From positions 1-64,000 of the forward strand of contig RAYB01000023.1 in the NCBI GenBank assembly GCA_003669055.1: DNA of 64,000 bases, in the 5' to 3' direction. Each line of letters begins with the position of its first letter. The first letter of the stretch is position 1. This DNA comes from a bacterium 1XD21-70. GTDB lineage: Bacteria; Bacillota; Clostridia; Lachnospirales; Lachnospiraceae. A program made the position numbers and the translations under genes. The notes below the pieces were generated by a model. The model saw only the letters and a list, made by a program, of their open reading frames with translations. It did no database searches and was not told the origin of the DNA. Below, piece by piece: positions 26,477 to 38,433 of the stretch.

Positions 26477-28336
26477 ATGCAGATCACCTATCTTGCCATC
26501 CGTAATTTCAAATCAATCCGGAACCTAAAGATCCACAATATCGAAAATGCCCTGATCTTAGTGGGCAAAAACAACACCGGCAAAACCGGGATTTTAAAGG
26601 CGATCCGTGCCGCCCTCGGCAGCTATCTGGTATCCGAGGGGGATTTCAACGAAAGCAACCAAAATATTGAGATCTCCATGACATTTGCCGTCTCCGGCGA
26701 GGATCTGCGCCAGTTCCATGCCCACGGCATTGTCAGCCAGTACAAGCGCTTTGATGCATGGAAAAAGGATTTTTCCGCCAAACTCCCCTCCTTTGACGGC
26801 AGCAGCCTTTCCTTCACCTGTATGATCAACCGCAGCCGTGTTGTCCGTTACAGTGACAATGTCCGCAAGCATAACCGCTTCATCCCCGAGGTGCTGCCGC
26901 GCCTGTACTTTATCGATACCGAGCGCCAGCTGTCTGCCTTCCAGGAGGATCTGCTTATGTTCCAGGAAGATGAACAGCTGATCCGCCTGCGTTCCAACAC
27001 CTGCATGTTCCGCTCCTCCAAAATCTGCAACCAGTGCTTCAGCTGCATCGGGCTGATCAACCAGAAAAAGCCGGAGGAACTGCAGCTGTGTGAGACTGCC
27101 AAGCTTTTAGAATACAAGATGTACCGCTTAAATCTCAGCGACTTTTCCCAAAGAGTCAATGAAAATTACCAGAAAAACGGCGGCATAGAGGAGATCCTCT
27201 ATACCCTCACCTGCAATTCCGACTCCCTGTTCTCGGTTACGGTGGAAGCGAAACGGGATGGACGGCAGCACCTTACCCCCATAGAGTCCCTGAGCAATGG
27301 CATGAAAAGCATCTATATGCTGTCGCTGTTAGAGACCTATATTGAAGGCGAGAAACATATCCCAAGCATTATCATGGTGGAATACCCGGAACTGTTCCTC
27401 CACCCCAGCCTCCAGAAAAATGCCGGTGCGATCTTGTTCCGCCTCTCGCGCAAGAACCAGGTGGTCTTTTCCACCCACTCCCCCAACCTGATCGCCAACT
27501 TCACGAGCCGCCAGCTCTGCCAGGTGGTCACTGACCAGGAGCACTGCTGCAGCGTGCGCAGCCATGCGGACATTGACCAGGTCTTAGACGACCTCGGCTA
27601 TGGCGCCAACGACCTTTTAAATGTCAGCTTCGTCTTTATCGTGGAAGGCAAGCAGGACAAAAACCGCCTGCCCCTGCTGCTGAAAAAGTATTATCCGGAA
27701 CTGCATGACGCCGGCGGCAGGCTGTCGCGGATCTCGATCCTGACCACCAACAGCTGCACCAACATCAAGACCTACGCCAACCTAAAGTACATGAACCAGG
27801 TCTATCTGCGGGATCAGTTTTTGATGATCCGGGACGGTGACGGCAAAGATCCCGAACTGCTGGCAACACAGCTATGCCGTTATTATGATGAGAGAAGTTT
27901 TGAGGATATCGACAAACTCCCCAGGGTTCGCCGCCGCAATGTCCTCATCCTCAAATACTATTCCTTTGAAAATTATTTCCTGAATCCCGGCGTCATGGCA
28001 AAGCTGGGCATTGTGGACAGCGAGGAGGCTTTCTGGCAGACACTCCTTAATAAATGGAAGGAATACCTCCACCGCCTGTCCGGCGGGCGCCGTCTGGTTG
28101 ATGTTTTAGGAAAAGAGATTCTGACAGTGGAAGACTTACAGGGACATTTTGAAGAATTTAAGATTTATAACCGCGGCCACAACCTGTACGATATTTTTTA
28201 CGGCCCGTTCAAGCATCAGGAAGCCGAACTTCTGGAACGATATATCGACCTGGCCCCGCGGGAGGATTTTAAGGATATCTTAGATGCCATTGACGCATTT
28301 CCCTTCTTTGAAAGCCGGAAGGGGCGCAACCCATAG
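26477..28336 (+). CDS. OLD-like ATPase/TOPRIM nuclease
   Basis: 619 residues. An SMC/ABC-like N-terminus (MQITYLAIRNFKSIRNLKI) carries Walker A VGKNNTGKTGILKAI at about 32-46. There is a signature-like segment (LSNGMKSIYMLS), Walker B IIMVEYPELFLHPSL near 300 and the switch His in VVFSTHSPNL. A TOPRIM domain follows from about 384 (FVFIVEGKQDKNRLP, with DGDGKD as the acidic pair near 455). This architecture is that of OLD family nucleases, which include phage P2 Old and GajA. A Cys-rich insert near 175-205 (CNQCFSCIGLIN with Cys on both sides) could bind zinc and is atypical. No GajB/UvrD partner is adjacent. A defence or DNA-repair role is inferred. AAAAGGAGGCGCCCC precedes the ATG. Confidence 0.83.
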   Translation: MQITYLAIRNFKSIRNLKIHNIENALILVGKNNTGKTGILKAIRAALGSYLVSEGDFNESNQNIEISMTFAVSGEDLRQFHAHGIVSQYKRFDAWKKDFSAKLPSFDGSSLSFTCMINRSRVVRYSDNVRKHNRFIPEVLPRLYFIDTERQLSAFQEDLLMFQEDEQLIRLRSNTCMFRSSKICNQCFSCIGLINQKKPEELQLCETAKLLEYKMYRLNLSDFSQRVNENYQKNGGIEEILYTLTCNSDSLFSVTVEAKRDGRQHLTPIESLSNGMKSIYMLSLLETYIEGEKHIPSIIMVEYPELFLHPSLQKNAGAILFRLSRKNQVVFSTHSPNLIANFTSRQLCQVVTDQEHCCSVRSHADIDQVLDDLGYGANDLLNVSFVFIVEGKQDKNRLPLLLKKYYPELHDAGGRLSRISILTTNSCTNIKTYANLKYMNQVYLRDQFLMIRDGDGKDPELLATQLCRYYDERSFEDIDKLPRVRRRNVLILKYYSFENYFLNPGVMAKLGIVDSEEAFWQTLLNKWKEYLHRLSGGRRLVDVLGKEILTVEDLQGHFEEFKIYNRGHNLYDIFYGPFKHQEAELLERYIDLAPREDFKDILDAIDAFPFFESRKGRNP

Positions 28337-30398: not shown

Positions 30399-32399
30399 TC
30401 AATCCTCACACTCCAGCAGCATTTTCTTCACCTGCAGCATCCGGTCACGTAAGATGGCGGCCTCCTCAAAGTTCAGTTCTGCAGCTGCCTGGTTCATCTT
30501 CTTTTGCAGTTCTTTGGCCAGCTTGCCAAGTTCCTTGGCATCCATGGATTCCGGATCCTTCTCGAAGCTTCCGGCGTCTGCCTCTGCCGCCTTGGAGATG
30601 GCAATCAGGTCACGGACTGCCTTCTTAATTGTAGTCGGTGTAATCCCATGCTCTTCATTGTACTTCTGCTGGATCTGCCGACGCCGGTTCGTCTCCTCAA
30701 TCGCCGTTTGCATGGAATCCGTAATGGTATCTGCATACATGATTACATGGCCGTCTGCGTTTCTCGCTGCCCGCCCTATGGTCTGGATCAGGGAGGTCTC
30801 CGACCGCAGGAAGCCTTCCTTGTCCGCATCCAGGATCGCCACCAGCGTGATCTCCGGGATATCCAGCCCTTCCCTCAGCAGGTTGATGCCCACCAGCACG
30901 TCAAACACGTCCATGCGCATGTCGCGGATGATCTCCGCCCTCTCCAGCGTATCGATATCCGAGTGCAGGTACTTCACCCGGATCCCCACCTCCCGCATAT
31001 AGTCTGTTAAGTCCTCCGCCATCCGCTTGGTCAGTGTGGTGATTAAGACCTTATTGTGCCCTGCCACCTCCTTGTTGACCTCCGAAACCAGGTCGTCGAT
31101 CTGCCCCTCCACCGGACGCACGGAAATCTCCGGATCCAGCAGCCCCGTAGGCCGGATAATCTGCTCTACCCGCATCAGTTCATGCTCCGCCTCATATACA
31201 TTGGGCGTGGCCGAGACGAACATCATCTGGTCAATCTTGCCCTCAAACTCGCCAAAATTCAACGGGCGGTTGTCCAGTGCCGACGGCAGGCGGAACCCGA
31301 AATCCACCAGCGTCTGCTTCCTCGAACGATCCCCGGCATACATCCCCCGCACCTGCGGCAACGTAATGTGGGACTCATCGACAATAATCAGGAACTCCTC
31401 CGGGAAATAATCGATCAGCGTCCACGGCGGCTCCCCGGGCTTGCCAAAGGTCAGGTGACGGGAATAATTCTCAATCCCCGAGCAAAATCCGGTCTCCCGC
31501 ATCATCTCCACGTCGAAATTCGTGCGTTCCCCGATCCGCTGTGCCTCAATCAGCTTGTCCTCACTCTTAAAATAGGCCACCTGTCCTTTCATCTCCTCCA
31601 GGATGTTTTCCGTAGCTAACAGCATCTTATCCTTCGGAACCACATAGTGGGAGGCAGGGAAAACCGCGATATGCCCCAGCTGCAGCTTCCCCTCGCCGGT
31701 AAGCCCGTCAATCTCCGTAATCCGTTCCACCTCGTCTCCAAAGAACTCAATGCGGTACGCCTCGCTTCCGGAATAAGCCGGGAACACCTCCAGCACATCC
31801 CCCCGCACCCGGAACGTCCCCCGGTGGAAATCCATATCATTGCGCGTATACTGGATATCGATCAGCTTGTGGATAATCTCGTCCCGGTCACGCACCATCC
31901 CCGGGCGCAGGGAGATCACCATCTCTTTATAGTCAATCGGGCTTCCCAACCCATAAATACAAGACACCGATGCCACGATGATTACATCCTTCCGCTCGGA
32001 AAGCGCCGCAGTGGCAGAATGGCGCAGCTTGTCGATCTCGTCATTGATGGCCGAATCCTTCTCGATGTAGGTATCGGTGGAGGGGACATAGGCTTCGGGC
32101 TGGTAGTAGTCATAGTAGGACACAAAATATTCCACTGCGTTACTCGGAAAATACTCTTTGAACTCACCATAGAGCTGTGCCGCTAATGTCTTATTGTGCG
32201 CTATTACCAAAGTCGGCTTGTTCAGCTGTGCAATCACGTTGGCCATGGTAAAGGTCTTTCCGGAGCCCGTAACACCCAGTAAAGTCTGGAATTGATTGCC
32301 TTCCCGGAACCCATTGACCAGGGCTTCTATGGCCTGGGGCTGGTCGCCGGTGGGCTTGTATTCGCTGTGAAGTTCGAAGATTTTTTGTTCATTTTGCAC
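30399..32399 (-). CDS. uvrB: Excinuclease ABC subunit UvrB (5' part supplied by an integrated element)
   Basis: 666 residues, complete. UvrB loads onto damaged DNA with UvrA and recruits UvrC. Walker [21 protein letters not shown] near 40-60; beta-hairpin region [20 protein letters not shown]; helicase motifs [11 protein letters not shown] and QTIGRAARN; the C-terminal UVR motif [11 protein letters not shown] binds UvrC. The first 95 codons lie within the integrated element: 61 bases (32113-32173) are repeated exactly at 37792-37852, where the native 5' end of uvrB survives as a fragment. The current N-terminus ([19 protein letters not shown]) differs from the native one ([15 protein letters not shown]). 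AGAGGTGAG lies 12 bases before the ATG, a long spacing; the in-frame TTG three codons earlier is an alternative start. Confidence 0.95.
32113..32173 (+). repeat. Left attachment repeat within uvrB
   Basis: 61 bases identical to 37792-37852, starting TAGTAGGACACAAAATATTC. Beyond position 32173 the two copies continue as uvrB but diverge at several sites; before 32113 only this copy continues as uvrB. The recombination core therefore lies in or at the edge of this segment. Confidence 0.85.
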
Positions 32400-32449
32400 A
32401 AATGCTCACCTCTGATTTCATAGTAAAAAAAGACGCCTATTAGGCAAAA

Positions 32450-32481
32450 ATTCGTCGTGGAACATTTTATTTTCGTCGTGG
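32450..32481 (-). promoter_or_regulatory. Direct repeats upstream of the current uvrB start
   Basis: On the plus strand ATTCGTCGTGG at 32450-32460 and TTTCGTCGTGG at 32471-32481, 21 bases apart. The native uvrB fragment has ATTCGTGTAA at 38136 and 38157, also 21 bases apart, in homologous surroundings (an AATAGGC segment next to CGAATTT). They look like paired operator or promoter elements of uvrB that diverged between the two versions. The 269-base gap 32400-32668 also contains an 11-base hairpin GCCTAATAGGC and the copy of the end repeat at 32510. Confidence 0.45.
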
Positions 32482-32509
32482 CATTTACTCAAATTGGAGA
32501 AAAACAGGC

Positions 32510-32533
32510 CCACGACGAATCCCGTTCACAATT
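32510..32533 (+). repeat. Left copy of 24-base end repeat of the element
   Basis: CCACGACGAAT, then CCC, then GTTCACAATT. The right copy at 37660-37683 differs only in the three central bases (TTT). Both are in the same orientation and lie near the ends of the element, as arm-type recombinase sites do. CCACGACGAAT is also the inverse of the repeats at 32450 and 32471. Confidence 0.6.
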
Positions 32534-32668
32534 TGCTGTTTTTGCAACTTGGCGCACCTCTGTAATTCCATACGGACGTAGCAGCACCAAAGAGCCTTTT
32601 TATCTTACCACAAATCGATAAATTTGTATAGATGCAAAATCGAACTTTTGTTCTTTTTATCCTTTCTG

Positions 32669-33623
32669 TCACCCTGCATCCGGAAGAAATTCTTTTACAT
32701 CTACAACAATCTCCAACAGTTCCTTTTTAAAATTTTCTATCTCTCTCAGGTTCGGTAAAACCTCCTTCATATATTCCTCAATTTCCGGCACCCCATCCGC
32801 TATGATACCTTTATTATCGGCGTAAACGTCCATAGTTATGAGTTCCTTGGCATGTCCCATAAGCTTCGATACCGCTTTGGGGTTGAATGCCTCTTTTAGC
32901 AGGAGCGTGCAGTATGTACTGCGCAAATCATGCCAGCGGATGTCCGGCAGGCCATTTTCAGCAAGAAGCTGTTTATAATACCTGCAATGGAACCCTTTGC
33001 TCCTTGCTCTGCCATAGTTGGAACAACAGATACAATCCATATCCTGGAACTCTCCCTTTCTGCGGTTTTACGTTTCTCTCATACACCTGCCGTTCCTTTA
33101 AGATTGCCCGGGAAACATAATCAGGAATCGGAATCTCTCTGTAACTGGATTTTGTCTTTAATCCCACTTCCTGTTTCGTAAAAGTTTTCGGGGCAAAATC
33201 TTCCTTTACTGCATTATGTATCCTCCCCAGCTGACGTTCCACTTTTAAGGTGCGGTTGATATAATCTACATCCGAATATTTTACGCCATTGATCTCGGAC
33301 CTGCGGAGCCCCATAAGTACATTAAACAGCACCTGCATATGGATCGGGGTATCTTTGCTCTTTTCCAGCAGAACCGAAATCTGCTCCATAGTCAGTGTTT
33401 TCTGTTCATCTATATTTCGGGTCCTGAAGCCTGATTTGGGCTGCGGCTTTTCCGCTTTAGGAAGTCCTATTCCATCCACCGGACTGGTCGGGATCACTTT
33501 GGCCGTTACCGCATAACGAAAAGAGACATTCATGATTGTTTTTACCTGCTCTGCTATCGGTCTCGAATAGTCTGCCTTGATATTAAACAATTTTTGAACG
33601 TCTCCGCGAGTAACATCCGTCAT
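32669..33623 (-). pseudogene. Tyrosine recombinase (integrase), catalytic part split by frameshift
   Basis: Two frames together encode one integrase. The 33623-32973 frame (MTDVTRGDVQKLFN...) carries core-binding sequence and the first catalytic Arg in LMGLRRSEINGVKYSDVDY. The 33040-32669 frame carries the remaining catalytic motifs HDLRSTYCTLLL (His-x-x-Arg) and KLMGHAKELITMDVYAD (His and the Tyr nucleophile). The change of frame falls near 33055-33065, in CAGAAAGGGAGAG, consistent with loss of one base in a short A/G run. The original protein would read on as GEFQDMDCICC. All catalytic residues are present but no single chain contains them. Confidence 0.85.
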
Positions 33624-34348
33624 TTTTTCTTACCCAGGATGGGAATGATATGATTCTTTACTATTCCGCAATAATTATAGTACGTTTCGTGACTGTCTGT
33701 GCGCTTTTTAAGATCCGTTTCAAGCCAGAACATCATATAATCAGCCACATTAACTTTTGCGTATACAACAAACGTACCATTATATTCAAAATATTGTTCG
33801 CCATACTGCTGCTTATTAGATTCTGCCAGAATCCTTCTTCTTTCAATTTCCGCAGCCACAGCCTCTGGTATCCTCAATAGCCTGTAACTATTGTCCGTCT
33901 TTGGCGGTTTCTCTATGACTTCATACGTTTTAATTTTTCTTTCACCCTTTGGAATAACAGGATTGGATGTGATTTGCCGCTGAATATAGATTGTCCTGTT
34001 TTCAGCATCAAAATCTCCGAATTTCAAACCTGAAATTTCACCTTTTCTGAGTCCGCAGAACAACCCAAGCAGAATCTCCAGATACCATCCGCTATTGTAA
34101 GCAGCTTTCAGAAGTTTTTTCACATTTGCTTTGTTTAAAATAATAATTGTTGGCTTTTTTCTCGGATATGATTTCGTTGCAGGTATCGGATTCCTTTTGA
34201 TATATTCCTGTATTACAGCCTCTTTCATTGCCATGTTCAAGAACTCTCTGGATTTGTTGCCAGCAGAATCGCATGCCTTTGAGACAACAGCCAGCAGGGA
34301 ATCAAAATATTCCTCATTTGCATATCGCAATTTTATATCCTGCTGCAT
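33620..34348 (-). pseudogene. Hybrid remnant: first integrase core joined to the N-terminal domain of the second
   Basis: 242 codons. The first ~195 are an integrase internal region with the first catalytic Arg (LGLFCGLRKGEISGLKFGDFD) but no later catalytic motifs. From about 33757 the sequence becomes an N-terminal SAM-like domain (VADYMMFWLETDLKKRT, NYCGIVKNHIIPILGKKK) that belongs to the recombinase continuing at 33623. The stop arises because a run of six A (AAGAAAAAATGA) is one short; with seven A the frame would run on into MTDVTRGDVQK. So a deletion fused two tandem integrase genes, followed by homopolymer frameshift. The true N-terminus of the first is missing. Confidence 0.75.
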
Positions 34349-34481
34349 ATTCGGAAGAATCAGGTCGTACAGTAGGTTGTATTCTCAATCCTCTGTGAAA
34401 ATCAAAATGATATTTTTCTTCTTTCCGAATATTATAAAATCAGTATCGGTTATCCTTTTTTAGCCTGCTGCATTCTGCTGG

Positions 34482-34895
34482 TCAACAAAATGCTAACTGG
34501 AATGAAACTCTTATTCCACTTGCCTGTATTTTTTCTACTGCCTGAATAGCCATTTCATAACTGACTTCTTCTTCCAGCAAAGCCTCGGTCAGATTTTGAT
34601 AATCCTCTTTATAAATTTTTTGCTCTATGATCGTTTGCAGGAGTTCTGCTACATCAGCATCATCCTGTGCCGAAGGACATATATTTGAACATTTCCTTAC
34701 AGTCCTGACTTCTTCAACAAGCTTTTTAAAATTCTCATTCACTCCCACAAACGGCAGTTTTTGTGACAAAAGCCGCAAGATCATGGTCACATAATAATCT
34801 TTTTCGATGACAATTTCTGACATTCCCGTATACCCAGCCGTCATTCTGATGGCATCCAAAAATTGTTCCCTGTCCTCATGCAGATACACCCGCAA
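34482..34895 (-). pseudogene. AbiEii-type nucleotidyltransferase toxin with its catalytic core deleted
   Basis: 137 codons. The N-terminal part (MRVYLHEDREQFLDAIRMTA, EIVIEKDYYVTMILRLLS) is the start of an AbiEii/AbiGii-type toxin. After LPFVGVNENF the sequence jumps to a C-terminal piece (KKLVEEVRTVRKCSNICPSAQDD, then ALLEEEVSYEMAIQAVEKI). The nucleotidyltransferase core with its GGTSLS and DxD-type motifs is absent, and the usual length of about 280-300 residues is halved. The start overlaps the antitoxin gene by 20 bases, the normal arrangement of AbiE operons. Probably inactive. Confidence 0.75.
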
Positions 34896-35526
34896 GTACC
34901 CCCGTTTCGTACATATTTTTATATATTTTTTTCGGATAGTAACTTAAATATGGTTCCAATGCCGAAAAGGTAATATCCATCTTCTGCATAATCTCCAACA
35001 TTCTCTTTTTTAAATCGTCCCCCTCCTCCTCAGAATAAACATCTACATCCCTAATCAAATCAAGAAACTGCAAAATTCTGACATTCTCATCTGTAACCGA
35101 CACCTTCGGCCTCCTGACAATCACCTTTGTTTTACTTATCATAATTTTCCTATAATCTGTAGTAGCATTGTTTGACACCACTTCATAAACCATCGGAACC
35201 TGTGTTGTCAGACCAGCCATATTGACAAGCATATAACCACTTAAATAACCACACACCTTATCCTTATTCTTTAAATATTTTTTTTCAATAACCTGCATCG
35301 CAGAAATCGTGGAGCCCGATTTGAATATTGTTTTTTGGGGGATAAAGTAAATACCCGTGTCAAACCGTTTCAACATTCCAGCATCCGTCATCTTTTTAAT
35401 CTGTACCCGCAATGTATTTTCATTAAGTCCTTCTATGTCTAACTCAGATACGAAAATAGGCGTATTTTCCCCATAATTTTCCATAAGATAATCATATAAC
35501 ATCCTGTATTCTCCTTCTGTAAACAT
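34876..35526 (-). CDS. AbiEi-type antitoxin / regulator of viral defence
   Basis: 216 residues. The N-terminal winged helix (MLYDYLMENYGENTPIFVSELDIEGLNENTLRVQIKKMTDAGML, up to ~50) and the YFIPQKTIF segment match AbiEi antitoxins of type IV toxin-antitoxin systems. The C-terminal domain (about 90-216) includes VCGYLSGYMLVNMAGLTTQVP. AbiEi binds its own promoter and neutralises AbiEii. Here the antitoxin looks complete while the adjacent toxin gene has lost its core. Upstream of it, 35527-35794 is AT-rich and holds only a paralogue remnant. Confidence 0.82.
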   Translation of the reverse strand: MFTEGEYRMLYDYLMENYGENTPIFVSELDIEGLNENTLRVQIKKMTDAGMLKRFDTGIYFIPQKTIFKSGSTISAMQVIEKKYLKNKDKVCGYLSGYMLVNMAGLTTQVPMVYEVVSNNATTDYRKIMISKTKVIVRRPKVSVTDENVRILQFLDLIRDVDVYSEEEGDDLKKRMLEIMQKMDITFSALEPYLSYYPKKIYKNMYETGVLAGVSA

Positions 35527-35619
35527 TTAAGAAATTTATATTTTCTATTTTATTATACTCACTTTTTTTGAAAATATCAACAATAGAAAATTAAAAATTT
35601 TAAACGGAACATCTCAAGC

Positions 35620-35670
35620 CATTTCCGCACCTGCTGGATGGACAATTCCAAACTCCACACTTCATGCCAA
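35620..35670 (-). pseudogene. Short remnant of a paralogue of the 187-aa protein gene
   Basis: On the minus strand this stretch encodes EVWSLELSIQQVRKWLEM, close to VVWSLELSVQQVRSRFEIE of the intact gene at 35795-36358. No start, no long frame. It shows that the element once had a second related gene here, or that a recombination event duplicated part of it. Confidence 0.6.
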
Positions 35671-35794
35671 TTAGCATATCGGCATTTTTGTAATCTAAAT
35701 GCCGATTTGCTAAATCTATAACTACTACCTTTTTTCGTATACCATTCCAATAGTCAATTTGATCTTACAATATCAAGCAAGTGCGATATCCTTA

Positions 35795-36358
35795 TTATCT
35801 TTCGTTGAAAAGCCTTTTGTCATTCTGAATTATTAGAATCAGGAAAAAACGTTCCAGCACCTCTATACTGTCCTTAGACGTATATCCCCACAGGATAGAA
35901 CTGAGCGCGTCAATCGCCTCCCGCCTCCTGCGGTAATAGGTACGGAAACTAATATCCCGGATATGGGGGCGCAGTTTCTCTATGATCTCCTCCACATTTC
36001 GGAGTTGCTGCGGGGAGAGGAAGAAGTAATACAGCAGCCAGTAATAGCTCTCCCCATTTTTATGCTTGGTACGGAGCAGGTCGATGGAGGTATCCAGAAG
36101 TTTCAGCATCCGGTGGCTCCGCTCGATACATTTGGCATGGTGCTCAATGCTGCGGTCTGACAGGTCTATTCCGACCACATAGACGGACTCCAGGAAATCC
36201 TCAATGGAACTCCCATATTCGATCTCAAACCGGCTCCGCACCTGCTGGACGGACAGTTCCAGACTCCACACCACGTCCCTGTATTTCTTCAGCAGTTTCC
36301 AGGTATCATGATACAGTGGGTTATCGGCAATGTTCATTTCTTCCTGATTCTTTTTCAT
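35795..36358 (-). CDS. Unknown protein of the integrated element (187 aa)
   Basis: I do not recognise a named family. It is soluble, helical and charged. The C-terminal part (IRDISFRTYYRRRREAIDALSSILWGYTSKDSIEVLERFF) has the look of the DNA-binding end of ArpU/RinA-like phage regulators, but this is a resemblance only. Its ATG overlaps the stop of the preceding replication-type gene (ATGA), so the two are translationally coupled and likely work together. Confidence 0.6.
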   Translation of the reverse strand: MKKNQEEMNIADNPLYHDTWKLLKKYRDVVWSLELSVQQVRSRFEIEYGSSIEDFLESVYVVGIDLSDRSIEHHAKCIERSHRMLKLLDTSIDLLRTKHKNGESYYWLLYYFFLSPQQLRNVEEIIEKLRPHIRDISFRTYYRRRREAIDALSSILWGYTSKDSIEVLERFFLILIIQNDKRLFNER

Positions 36359-37512
36359 GCCCTGGCACCTCCTTCTCTGCTTTTTTCGGTTGGGGAAAGC
36401 GTCAGCTCAAAGGTATAGACTGGCTTATCCTCCCCACAAAATACAGTCATTCCAAACCGTACAGCACCTTTCAGTATGCGGGATATATACTCTTCCCTGC
36501 AGACGTCTGATAAAGGATATAACTTATATATGGATTTGGGACACCGGAAACAGGAAATGCCCTGTGCATCAAGGACTTGCGCCATTTTTGTGATGACAGC
36601 TTCCATGTTCGATTTTGAAACGCTGGTTAATTCCTCTGAAACGCATATCTCATGCTCTGTAACAGTAGAATCTTCCTGTGAATCTGTTTCATCCGGCAGT
36701 GCAAGATTGATTTTCAGTACCATAGCAACCTCCTCTTTATCAACAAGGACATCTGATATCTGGAACATAGTGGAAAGGTAGCTGTGCAGATAAATCACGC
36801 TGCCCGTTCTTCCGGGGAATGACATTAAGGAGATATAGTCCATGTCAGCAAGTTTTTTCAGCACACGCCCTGTTGTAGCTTTGGAGATGCCCCAGCGGAC
36901 AGCCATTTCACTGTAAGCTGCCAGCGGAGAGCCGGTGCCGTTGCGGAAATAGACCACCGGGCCAATCTCCGAACCCTGCACCTGGCTGTCATTGTAGACA
37001 GCAGACATCCACAGATCCAGCAGGATATCCATTTCAGAGCAGCGGCCGGCGCTGACCAGTTCTGTTGCAATCACAGTCGGCATAAAGAAAAATCCTGTAT
37101 CCTTTTGACAGGGGCAGTTGTAGTCCAGCACGGTATTATGTTTTTTCCAGTCACGCACCTTATATTTGACTACCTTTCCCCGGTCAAGGAAAAGATAGGA
37201 TATAAGATGGCGTTTCTGCAATTCATCCAGGATAGAAACTGCCTGGCACTGGAAACGGGTACGGAACCATGCTGTAAGTTCTTTCACGGTGCAGATCCAT
37301 TCACCGGGGTATACCGTATAGCCGATACCGTCTATGCGGAGATAGGAGGTACGGAAATTTGCGTAGTTGCAAAGCACCGTATAGTAAAAAAGGCCGGAAC
37401 CCCCGCTTGTGCGAATGCTCCGGTCTGCCATTAAGTTCTGGATAAACTGCCGGTAGATCCGGCAGCGTGGATAATCCACAATCTGTTTGATCTCTAATTG
37501 ATACTCTGACAT
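36355..37512 (-). CDS. Replication-initiator-like winged-helix protein of the integrated element
   Basis: 385 residues, no membrane segments. The region YTVYPGEWICTVKELTAWFRTRFQCQAVSILDELQKRHLI (about 65-105) resembles a DnaD/RepA_N-type winged helix. A second helix-turn-helix is likely at MAVRWGISKATTGRVLKKLADMDYI (about 210-234). Proteins of this layout are common in Clostridia mobile elements next to integrases. Role in replication or maintenance is inferred, not shown. The ribosome binding site (AATGAGGAGAAAGTC) is good. The 278 bases upstream (37513-37790) hold its promoter, the right end repeat and the junction with uvrB. Confidence 0.6.
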   Translation of the reverse strand: MSEYQLEIKQIVDYPRCRIYRQFIQNLMADRSIRTSGGSGLFYYTVLCNYANFRTSYLRIDGIGYTVYPGEWICTVKELTAWFRTRFQCQAVSILDELQKRHLISYLFLDRGKVVKYKVRDWKKHNTVLDYNCPCQKDTGFFFMPTVIATELVSAGRCSEMDILLDLWMSAVYNDSQVQGSEIGPVVYFRNGTGSPLAAYSEMAVRWGISKATTGRVLKKLADMDYISLMSFPGRTGSVIYLHSYLSTMFQISDVLVDKEEVAMVLKINLALPDETDSQEDSTVTEHEICVSEELTSVSKSNMEAVITKMAQVLDAQGISCFRCPKSIYKLYPLSDVCREEYISRILKGAVRFGMTVFCGEDKPVYTFELTLSPTEKSREGGARA

Positions 37513-37659
37513 GACTTTCTCCTCATTTCTTAAAATTTTCCTGTTGCTAAAATTTAAACTCTCTCATTGACTTATTTTCTGTAAAAAAAATCTACAAGAC
37601 AAATTTCCTATGCCTTGTAGATCATCATTTAGCTCCTATATTCTTCTTTTAAATACTTT

Positions 37660-37683
37660 CCACGACGAATTTTGTTCACAATT
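37660..37683 (+). repeat. Right copy of the 24-base end repeat of the element
   Basis: CCACGACGAAT, TTT, GTTCACAATT; matches 32510-32533 except for the three central bases. It lies about 108 bases from the right uvrB junction; the left copy is about 340 bases inside the left repeat. Confidence 0.6.
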
Positions 37684-37791
37684 CCTATGATTCCACCCTG
37701 TTTTTTCCCTCCATACATTCCACTTAGTCCACAATATATGGTATAAATGAAACCAAATAATACTATATATAGTTTCAAAAGTCCTTTCGCT

Positions 37792-37852
37792 TAGTAGGAC
37801 ACAAAATATTCCACTGCGTTACTCGGAAAATACTCTTTGAACTCACCATAGA
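37792..37852 (+). repeat. Right attachment repeat (native uvrB side)
   Basis: Identical to 32113-32173. On its left the sequence is element DNA; on its right it continues into the native, diverged 5' end of uvrB. Confidence 0.85.
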
Positions 37853-38066
37853 ACTGTACCGCTAATGTCTTATTGTGCGCGATTATCAAAGTCGGCTTGT
37901 TAAGCTGTGCGATCACGTTAGCCATGGTAAAGGTCTTTCCGAAACCCGTAACCCCCGGTAAAGCCTGGAATTGATTGCCTTCCTTGAAGCCTTCGGCCGG
38001 CTCGGCGATTGCCTGCGGCTGGTCGCCTGTAGGCTTGTAGGGGGTTTGTAATTTGAACTCTGGCAT
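37792..38066 (-). pseudogene. Displaced native 5' end of uvrB
   Basis: 91 codons from the ATG at 38066 (GGAGGTTTTCAT in front) to a stop formed at the element junction just after EYFVSY. It is UvrB residues 1-91 with decay: Walker A reads PGVTGFGKT instead of GVTGSGKT, and [10 protein letters not shown] and AVQFYGEF also depart from the intact copy. The motor and all later domains are missing. It kept its own upstream region, including the paired ATTCGTGTAA repeats, so it may still be transcribed into the element end. Confidence 0.88.
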
Positions 38067-38135
38067 ATGAAAACCTCCAATTTCCGCAAGGGATACTTCG
38101 TAATGCGGCCGAAAAAGTTTGCCTATTCGCCCGAA

Positions 38136-38166
38136 ATTCGTGTAATTTGATCTTCGATTCGTGTAA
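38136..38166 (-). promoter_or_regulatory. Paired direct repeats upstream of the native uvrB start
   Basis: ATTCGTGTAA at 38136-38145 and 38157-38166, 21 bases apart, 70-100 bases upstream of the displaced start codon. The element-borne uvrB copy has a pair with the same spacing but a different motif. The rest of the 367-base gap 38067-38433 holds no gene that I can support. Confidence 0.45.
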
Positions 38167-38433
38167 AATGGGCTTTCAAAGCTGGCGAATAAGCATTAAA
38201 ACAGCATTTATATGATGCAGGTCACATTACGCAGTATCTCTTTGGGAAAACCGTATTTTTGAAACGAAACAACACTGAATAGCATCAACCAGTACAGATA
38301 GTATTATCCGGCCATTTGGTTTTTCATTATAACATATAAGCAAAAAAGTGCAGACCAAAAAGGATGTGCCAATATCTGTGAACAATGCCCTTCGGCTTCC
38401 AAGATCATGTATGGAACATACCAGCTTTTTGTA

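What the first reader, a model, noticed from the sequence alone, without database searches (positions are those of the whole stretch)
32113..38066. Integrated element that inserts into uvrB and replaces its promoter and 5' end
A 61-base exact direct repeat (32113-32173, 37792-37852) brackets 5679 bases. On one side uvrB is full length with a new N-terminus; on the other lies the native first 91 codons, ending exactly at the junction. The element therefore splits uvrB but carries a diverged substitute for the lost part, including the upstream region. Excision would restore the native frame (length divisible by three). The displaced fragment has a mutated Walker A, showing relaxed selection. Restoring the target gene is known for elements in tRNA genes and some protein genes; uvrB as target is not one I recognise.
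Basis: partly seen in the sequence, partly recalled or inferred. Interest (0 to 1): 0.85.

Follow-up and report, generated by a model that had tools for sequence, protein, structure and literature searches.

The report
Mobile element swapping uvrB's front end
A piece of mobile DNA has inserted into the DNA-repair gene uvrB and given it a new start, and related elements do the same at the same spot in many gut bacteria, so their uvrB genes are patchworks of host and mobile DNA.

Summary

It belongs to a family. 42 of 397 sampled family genomes carry a uvrB 5' fragment cut near this codon. Relatives encode two adjacent tyrosine recombinases (here IntA, IntB) just before the supplied uvrB front end; in 73 of 80 IntB loci uvrB starts within 1.5 kb downstream.

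The swap is visible: three species share the upstream region and uvrB nt 1-278 at 100%, then fall to 74-76%; one pair shows the reverse, 98.8% 3' and 74.7% 5'. Loci without IntB show no such mosaicism (0 of 190 pairs). 59 of 75 supplied upstream regions hold a perfect LexA-box motif.

Corrections: the window's integrases are broken; the 'native' fragment is itself headed by element-type sequence; only ~14 bp of the 61-bp repeat look like the crossover core. Eight of 16 same-contig elements show no recombinase.

New 5' ends with promoters are known at dusA and prfC. New here: uvrB, paired recombinases, LexA-box region, scale.

The parts
30399..32399 (-). uvrB, full length (666 aa), chimeric: front end from the element, rest from the host
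   Evidence: domain hits; mosaicism
32116..32129 (-). attachment core on the intact-gene side (TATTTTGTGTCCTA on the minus strand), inside the 61-bp repeat 32113-32173
32130..32399 (-). substitute uvrB 5' end, codons 1-~90, 97.6% identical (with the core, 287 nt) to L119
32400..32668 (-). substitute upstream region, 99% identical to L119 and L117
   Evidence: a consensus scan found one weak sigma-70-like site, no more than in shuffles
32642..32653 (.). perfect LexA-box motif GAACN4GTTC (palindromic), within a foldable hairpin at about 32631-32680
32669..33040 (-). intB remnant, C-terminal catalytic part
   Evidence: Pfam Phage_integrase
32973..33623 (-). intB remnant, middle part, in another frame
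33620..34348 (-). intA catalytic-domain piece joined to an intB N-terminal piece
34482..34895 (-). decayed AbiEii-like gene (only residues 4-45 match)
34876..35526 (-). AbiEi-like gene
   Evidence: PADLOC AbiEi E 4.7e-79; Pfam DUF6088
35795..36358 (-). 187-aa protein of unknown function, shared with other uvrB elements
   Evidence: phrog_1558 unknown function
36355..37512 (-). 385-aa protein of unknown function, close relatives in other uvrB elements
   Evidence: no family (L040 relative)
37590..37622 (-). hairpin plus T-run, terminator-like, between the fragment and the first gene
   Evidence: script; not reported by the tool's stricter scan
37727..37771 (-). right-end repeats of TATTTNGTG type, read as integrase arm sites (inference)
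37795..37808 (-). attachment core on the fragment side
37791..38066 (-). displaced uvrB 5' fragment (91 codons) with altered Walker A
38067..38360 (-). upstream region of the fragment, related to IntB-uvrB spacers of other elements; no LexA box

Best explanation
The feature is a decayed member of a family of integrative elements whose attachment site is codons ~91-95 of uvrB. Members that look autonomous encode two adjacent tyrosine recombinases (IntA ~397 aa, IntB ~430 aa) directly before an upstream region with a LexA-box motif and a uvrB 5' end. Recombination within about TAYTTYGTNTCCTA joins the element's upstream region and codons 1-~91 to the host's following codons. The old upstream region and 5' end stay on the far side as a fragment that is usually stopped within a few codons. 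uvrB stays whole but becomes chimeric, and repeated integration can stack elements and replace the front end again. Shown by sequence: anatomy, shared junction, 5'-end mosaicism with a sharp breakpoint, recombinase linkage, LexA-box motif. Inferred: that IntA and IntB together catalyse the reaction, that excision happens in intact members, that the supplied region is an active SOS-controlled promoter.
For: Window anatomy. 42 of 397 family genomes, the window's own included, hold a uvrB copy truncated near the same codon (73 of the 397 were re-searched, chosen for two or more or weak matches; counted by eye). Core pattern in 31 of 32 fragment ends; stop at codon 95 or 96 in 24 of 32. uvrB within 1.5 kb after IntB in 73 of 80 loci, at least part of intA in 72 of 80. 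Pairs chosen on upstream identity >=95% alone: 5' more alike than 3' in 65 of 65, means 98.1 / 95.1 / 75.4% for upstream / 5' / 3'; pairs with 5' at least 15 points above 3': 157 of 2,080 IntB-linked, 0 of 190 without IntB. Breakpoints at codons 93-97 and between codons 90 and 93 in the reverse pair L123/L107. LexA-box motif perfect in 59 of 75 upstream regions, 4 of 1,500 shuffled ones.
Against: No excised circle and no same-strain empty site was seen. The window's recombinases are broken. Of 16 loci with both ends on one contig, 8 show no IntA/IntB match and 4 only a short intB piece; the only full-length pair among them is the divergent one of L061/L062, so intact canonical pairs were mostly seen with one end only. 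Two of 80 IntB loci show no uvrB within reach (L101, L152), and a pair in another family lies away from uvrB. Consensus scans found no convincing sigma-70 promoter at either window front end. Pairs and spacers are related, so counts overstate independence. Homologous recombination may also spread front ends.
Confidence: 0.92

Rival explanations
1. Simple tandem duplication of the uvrB 5' end with later divergence, unrelated to integration.
For: Both copies lie on one contig in the same orientation; 8 of 16 same-contig loci show no recombinase between the copies.
Against: The two front ends are unlike each other at the 5' side but each resembles front ends of other genomes' elements; the cut is at one codon across many genera and leads into a shared element-type end; recombinase genes sit at this place in 73 of 80 IntB loci.
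Confidence: 0.03
2. Front ends spread mainly by homologous recombination between uvrB genes, and the recombinases are passengers.
For: uvrB is conserved enough for homologous exchange; mismatch gradient in the window falls towards the junction.
Against: Breakpoints fall in codons 93-97 in the pairs examined rather than along the gene; loci without IntB show 0 of 190 pairs with the mosaic.
Confidence: 0.04
3. The uvrB front end is kept only as an integrase binding arm or stabiliser (loss of the element kills or harms uvrB), not as a functional gene part.
For: Spacers hold repeated motifs; a MazF/PemK-like gene stands before intA in 16 of 80 loci, which also suggests stabilisation.
Against: The joined uvrB ORF is intact in the window and the supplied codons keep the Walker A; these readings are not exclusive.
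Confidence: 0.1

Closest known systems
dusA-associated islands and prophages (PMC4482086; abstract start and passages seen)
   Same: [quoted passage not shown] -10/-35 regions noted before and after; excised forms and restored junctions detected by PCR (figure legend)
   Different: target dusA in Proteobacteria; no paired integrase and no LexA in the passages found
IMEVchUSA3 in dusA, and SXT in prfC as cited there (PMC8409611; part of abstract and passages seen)
   Same: [quoted passage not shown] expression measured there
   Different: new DusA N-terminus compared over 35 residues; here ~91 codons with the Walker A of UvrB; other hosts, other target
Tn1549/Tn916-type and XerA/XerD tyrosine recombinases (PDB chains 6emy, 6emz, 6en0, 5hxy; that 6emy is Tn1549 Int is recalled)
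   Same: shared catalytic domain; IntB also Arm-DNA-bind_4 and SAM-like domains
   Different: two genes side by side with a fixed target gene
Tn554-type paired tyrosine recombinases (recalled, no call)
   Same: two adjacent tyrosine recombinase genes
   Different: recalled: third gene tnpC, target radC, no long direct-repeat att sites; not tested

Membership tests
Integrative element replacing the 5' end of its target gene (dusA / prfC type) | insertion at one fixed point in the 5' part of one gene | tested here: met
   31 of 32 fragment ends at the core pattern; breakpoints
Integrative element replacing the 5' end of its target gene (dusA / prfC type) | element supplies an in-frame 5' coding sequence | tested here: met
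Integrative element replacing the 5' end of its target gene (dusA / prfC type) | element supplies a working promoter | tested here: inconclusive
   upstream region travels with the 5' end and holds a LexA box, but consensus promoter scans were unconvincing
Integrative element replacing the 5' end of its target gene (dusA / prfC type) | integrase gene next to the attachment site | tested here: met
   family level: 73 of 80 IntB loci; window: broken remnants; absent in 8 of 16 same-contig loci
Integrative element replacing the 5' end of its target gene (dusA / prfC type) | excision as a circle with restoration of the gene | not testable with these tools
   no reads or strain pairs
Tyrosine recombinase | Phage_integrase domain and catalytic R, H-x-x-R, H, Y | tested here: met
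   for intact relatives; the L062 IntA departs at several of these positions
Integrative and conjugative element | relaxase and type IV secretion genes | tested here: inconclusive
   window proteins: none. Relatives: MobA/MobL, Relaxase and coupling-protein hits, TraG-like ATPase in L076; eight named loci carry homologues of that gene's neighbours before intA
Temperate phage | phage structural genes; presence in viral collections | tested here: inconclusive
   IMG/VR scan with IntB: 2 matches at 24% identity; window proteins match only integrase or unknown-function PHROGs; cargo of relatives not scanned with PHROGs
Tn554-type element | tnpA, tnpB and tnpC with its own target | not tested
   recalled only

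The most novel reading that the evidence does not exclude
The elements work as an operon trap on the SOS response: integration parks the element's genes, recombinases last, behind the displaced LexA-controlled uvrB promoter while handing uvrB a substitute LexA-box region, so DNA damage would induce repair and element mobility together. For: 81 of 87 ORFs of at least 120 aa in 16 same-contig loci run with uvrB, and the first such ORF is co-directional in 31 of 32 ends; 11 of 31 displaced fragments have a perfect upstream box and 19 of 31 are within one mismatch, about 4 of 31 expected from shuffles. Against: by a simple hairpin script 14 of 32 ends, the window's included, have a terminator-like hairpin before the first gene (the tool's stricter scan does not report the window's); the window's displaced region lacks the box; 8 of 16 loci hold no recombinase to induce.
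Probability: 0.28. Interest if true: 0.82.

Novelty: new variant of a known kind. Interest (0 to 1): 0.63.

Why it matters
A core repair gene serves as a recurrent docking site, and mobile DNA repeatedly rewrites its upstream region and ATP-binding front end. That makes uvrB a mosaic in Lachnospiraceae (a caution for phylogeny and annotation), marks a place where mobile and some anti-phage genes gather, offers a conserved landing site for engineering gut anaerobes, and makes testable whether elements tie their own expression to the host SOS response.

Tried and rejected
Duplication and homologous exchange were weighed (see rivals). An apparent insertion inside uvrB of G140 (split match) is a run of N (L169). 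IMG/VR gave no close relative. Rfam at gathering scores found only a tRNA and a pemK leader in L119, L136, L153. Exact copies of the right-end motif TATTTNGTG are absent from 73 of 75 left spacers; looser look-alikes were seen by eye only. Cargo scans of 184 proteins show only the top 25 of 272, 203, 96 and 100 families; no enrichment of defence genes over a background was computed. Literature: searches list no paper that I recognised as describing uvrB as an integration target; I saw listings only, apart from passages of PMC4482086, PMC8409611, PMC4894674 (an engineered knock-in on a plasmid) and PMC12884075 (term search, no 'uvr'). The catalogue PMC7192596 is not held, so uvrB may be listed there.
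Full report
Observation. The repeat, the full-length uvrB and the 91-codon fragment are as described. The window lies in contig C41 of a 4.31-Mb assembly of 137 contigs. The element carries an AbiEi-like gene and a decayed AbiEii-like gene, a 187-aa and a 385-aa protein of unknown function, and broken integrase genes: an intA catalytic-domain piece joined to an intB N-terminal piece, then intB in two further frames.

How common. A 167-aa uvrB query matched 375 of 397 family genomes. I re-searched 73 of them, chosen for two or more or weak matches, with a 97-aa query. 41 of the 73 hold at least one copy that ends at query residue 69-92, most at 81-88; with the window's genome this is 42 of 397. 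The count was made by eye. In three genomes (G227, G251, G365) one search lists only the fragment and no full copy, and a few pieces lie at contig ends (G157, G198, G299). Some fragments lie 0.7-25 kb upstream of uvrB on the same strand, others on other contigs or far away (G104, G025, G046).

Junction. 34 fragment ends were extracted; L080 (contig end) and L092 (run of N) were dropped. Of the 32 left, 31 fit TAYTTYGTNWSYTA and 24 have their stop at codon 95 or 96, the others at 98-119. Beyond the core lie TATTTNGTG motifs at about +40, +50 and +71; 27 of 32 ends have at least one with up to one mismatch, against about 4 of 32 in shuffles. I read them as arm-type sites; that is inference.

Recombinases. 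Several loci hold two adjacent, mostly overlapping recombinase genes just before uvrB. Alignments A1 (IntB, 9 rows) and A2 (IntA, 8 rows) show the tyrosine-recombinase residues, with a divergent L062; Pfam, NCBIfam, PHROGs and PDB comparisons agree on tyrosine recombinase. A scan of named genomes gave 181 relatives of IntB, of which the tool kept 80. In 73 of 80 uvrB begins within 1.5 kb after IntB, mostly about 300 bp. Of the other 7, L079, L093 and L104 stop at a contig edge, L142 and L150 have uvrB 1.5-4.5 kb on, L101 and L152 show none. 72 of 80 show at least part of intA. Record titles include Hungatella hathewayi, [Clostridium] citroniae, Enterocloster alcoholdehydrogenati, Schaedlerella arabinosiphila, Acetatifactor muris, Eubacterium plexicaudatum and Drancourtella massiliensis. 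IntB at E <= 1e-60 occurs in 27 of 397 family genomes and 3 of 391 class genomes, one of them outside the family; both counts include the window's own.

A result against a simple picture. I read 16 loci with fragment and uvrB on one contig. 8 show no IntA/IntB match (L058, L059, L060, L063, L068, L071, L072, L073), 4 only a short intB piece (L057, L064, L065, L070), and the window, L066/67 and L069 have broken or partial genes; only L061/62 holds a full-length, divergent pair. Elements with intact canonical pairs were mostly seen from one end. L125 and L156, about 103 kb apart on one contig, may bracket one large element with a pair. The small ones may be decayed or moved in trans; not tested.

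The swap. The window's upstream region is 99% and its uvrB 5' end 97.6% identical to those of L119, while the 3' part is 75.6% identical. Among 65 IntB-linked loci (2,080 pairs), 157 pairs have the 5' part at least 15 points more alike than the 3' part and 1 pair the reverse; among 20 loci without IntB (190 pairs), none in either direction. Loci without the YFVSY motif or enough 3' sequence were dropped. Pairs are not independent. L129, L132 and L156 share upstream region and 5' end at 100% with 3' parts at 74-76%. First mismatches: L129/L156, L129/L132 and L120/L126 at the third base of codon 93, L132/L156 at codon 97; the other pairs printed there have a few earlier mismatches. L123/L107 are 98.8% identical in the 3' part and 74.7% in the 5' part, changing between codons 90 and 93: it looks like one host lineage with two different elements.

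The displaced fragment. Window 38067-38360 matches the spacer of L128 (92%) and L105 (91%) and the region before the L067 fragment (90%), beginning next to where the LexA box lies in L128. The fragment is therefore probably the front end of an earlier element; purF now lies next to it.

LexA box. 59 of 75 upstream regions (73 named loci and the two window ones) have a perfect GAACN4GTTC, mostly 230-260 bp before the uvrB start; 4 of 1,500 shuffled regions do. The regions are related, but the middle four bases vary. In this genome the motif stands just before recA (perfect) and in four one-mismatch copies before lexA. 7 of 20 uvrB loci without IntB also have a perfect box, so an SOS-type region is not peculiar to the elements. 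In five stretches folded the box lies in a hairpin, perhaps the intB terminator. Consensus scans of the window found one weak promoter-like site at the substitute region, no more than in shuffles, and none at the displaced one.

Cargo. In the 16 loci 81 of 87 ORFs of at least 120 aa run with uvrB; in a wider set that includes one-ended loci it is 302 of 405. Family hits include AbiE, AbiL, Druantia, a PDC-M62/Septu-like pair, bSEFIR, YhcG and RhuM. A MazF/PemK-like gene lies about 1.5 kb before intB, just before intA, in 16 of 80 named loci; the Pfam hit was made on one of them, the rest by clustering. Transfer genes occur in some relatives; none was found in the window's element.

Comparison. 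[quoted passage not shown] The present family works like these. It differs in target, recombinase pair, length of replaced protein, LexA-box region and stacking. I found no paper in the held library that names uvrB as such a target, but a key catalogue could not be read.

Confidence. Identity and swap are strongly supported; catalysis by IntA/IntB, excision, promoter function and the operon-trap idea are inference.

Noticed in passing
G046 / L136 (Hungatella hathewayi), 1.457 Mb and 5.450-5.453 Mb: IntA-IntB-uvrB and two uvrB 5' fragments lie on opposite strands at places nearly symmetric about base 1 (sum 6.91 of 6.93 Mb), as if an inversion had passed through the element.
   Followed up: no
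L163:7727-7765 (G557, another family): An IntA-IntB-like pair without uvrB; 76 bp after IntB a 13-residue stretch reads VVYFVNYYD*YWP, resembling the attachment region (69%, E about 0.2, may be chance).
   Followed up: partly
window 32434-32533, and IntB-uvrB spacers of relatives: The uvrB leader holds TTCGTCGTGG/CCACGACGAA repeats and a GCCTAATAGGC-type hairpin with a T-run before the start codon; a similar CCACGACGAA stretch lies at the right end, 37660-37683. Attenuator or protein sites; untested.
   Followed up: partly
L078, L080, L092, L093, L099, L100, L102-L104, L106, L107, L110, L111, L118, L153, L154: A MazF/PemK-like gene stands at a near-constant distance before intA in 16 of 80 loci; L153 also has an Rfam pemK leader.
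   Followed up: partly
L058, L059, L060, L063, L068, L071, L072, L073: Small elements or spacers between fragment and uvrB with no IntA/IntB match; possibly decayed or moved in trans.
   Followed up: partly
window 26477-28336 (+): 619-aa ORF beyond uvrB that looks by eye like an OLD-type ATPase with a TOPRIM-like part (no family scan).
   Followed up: no
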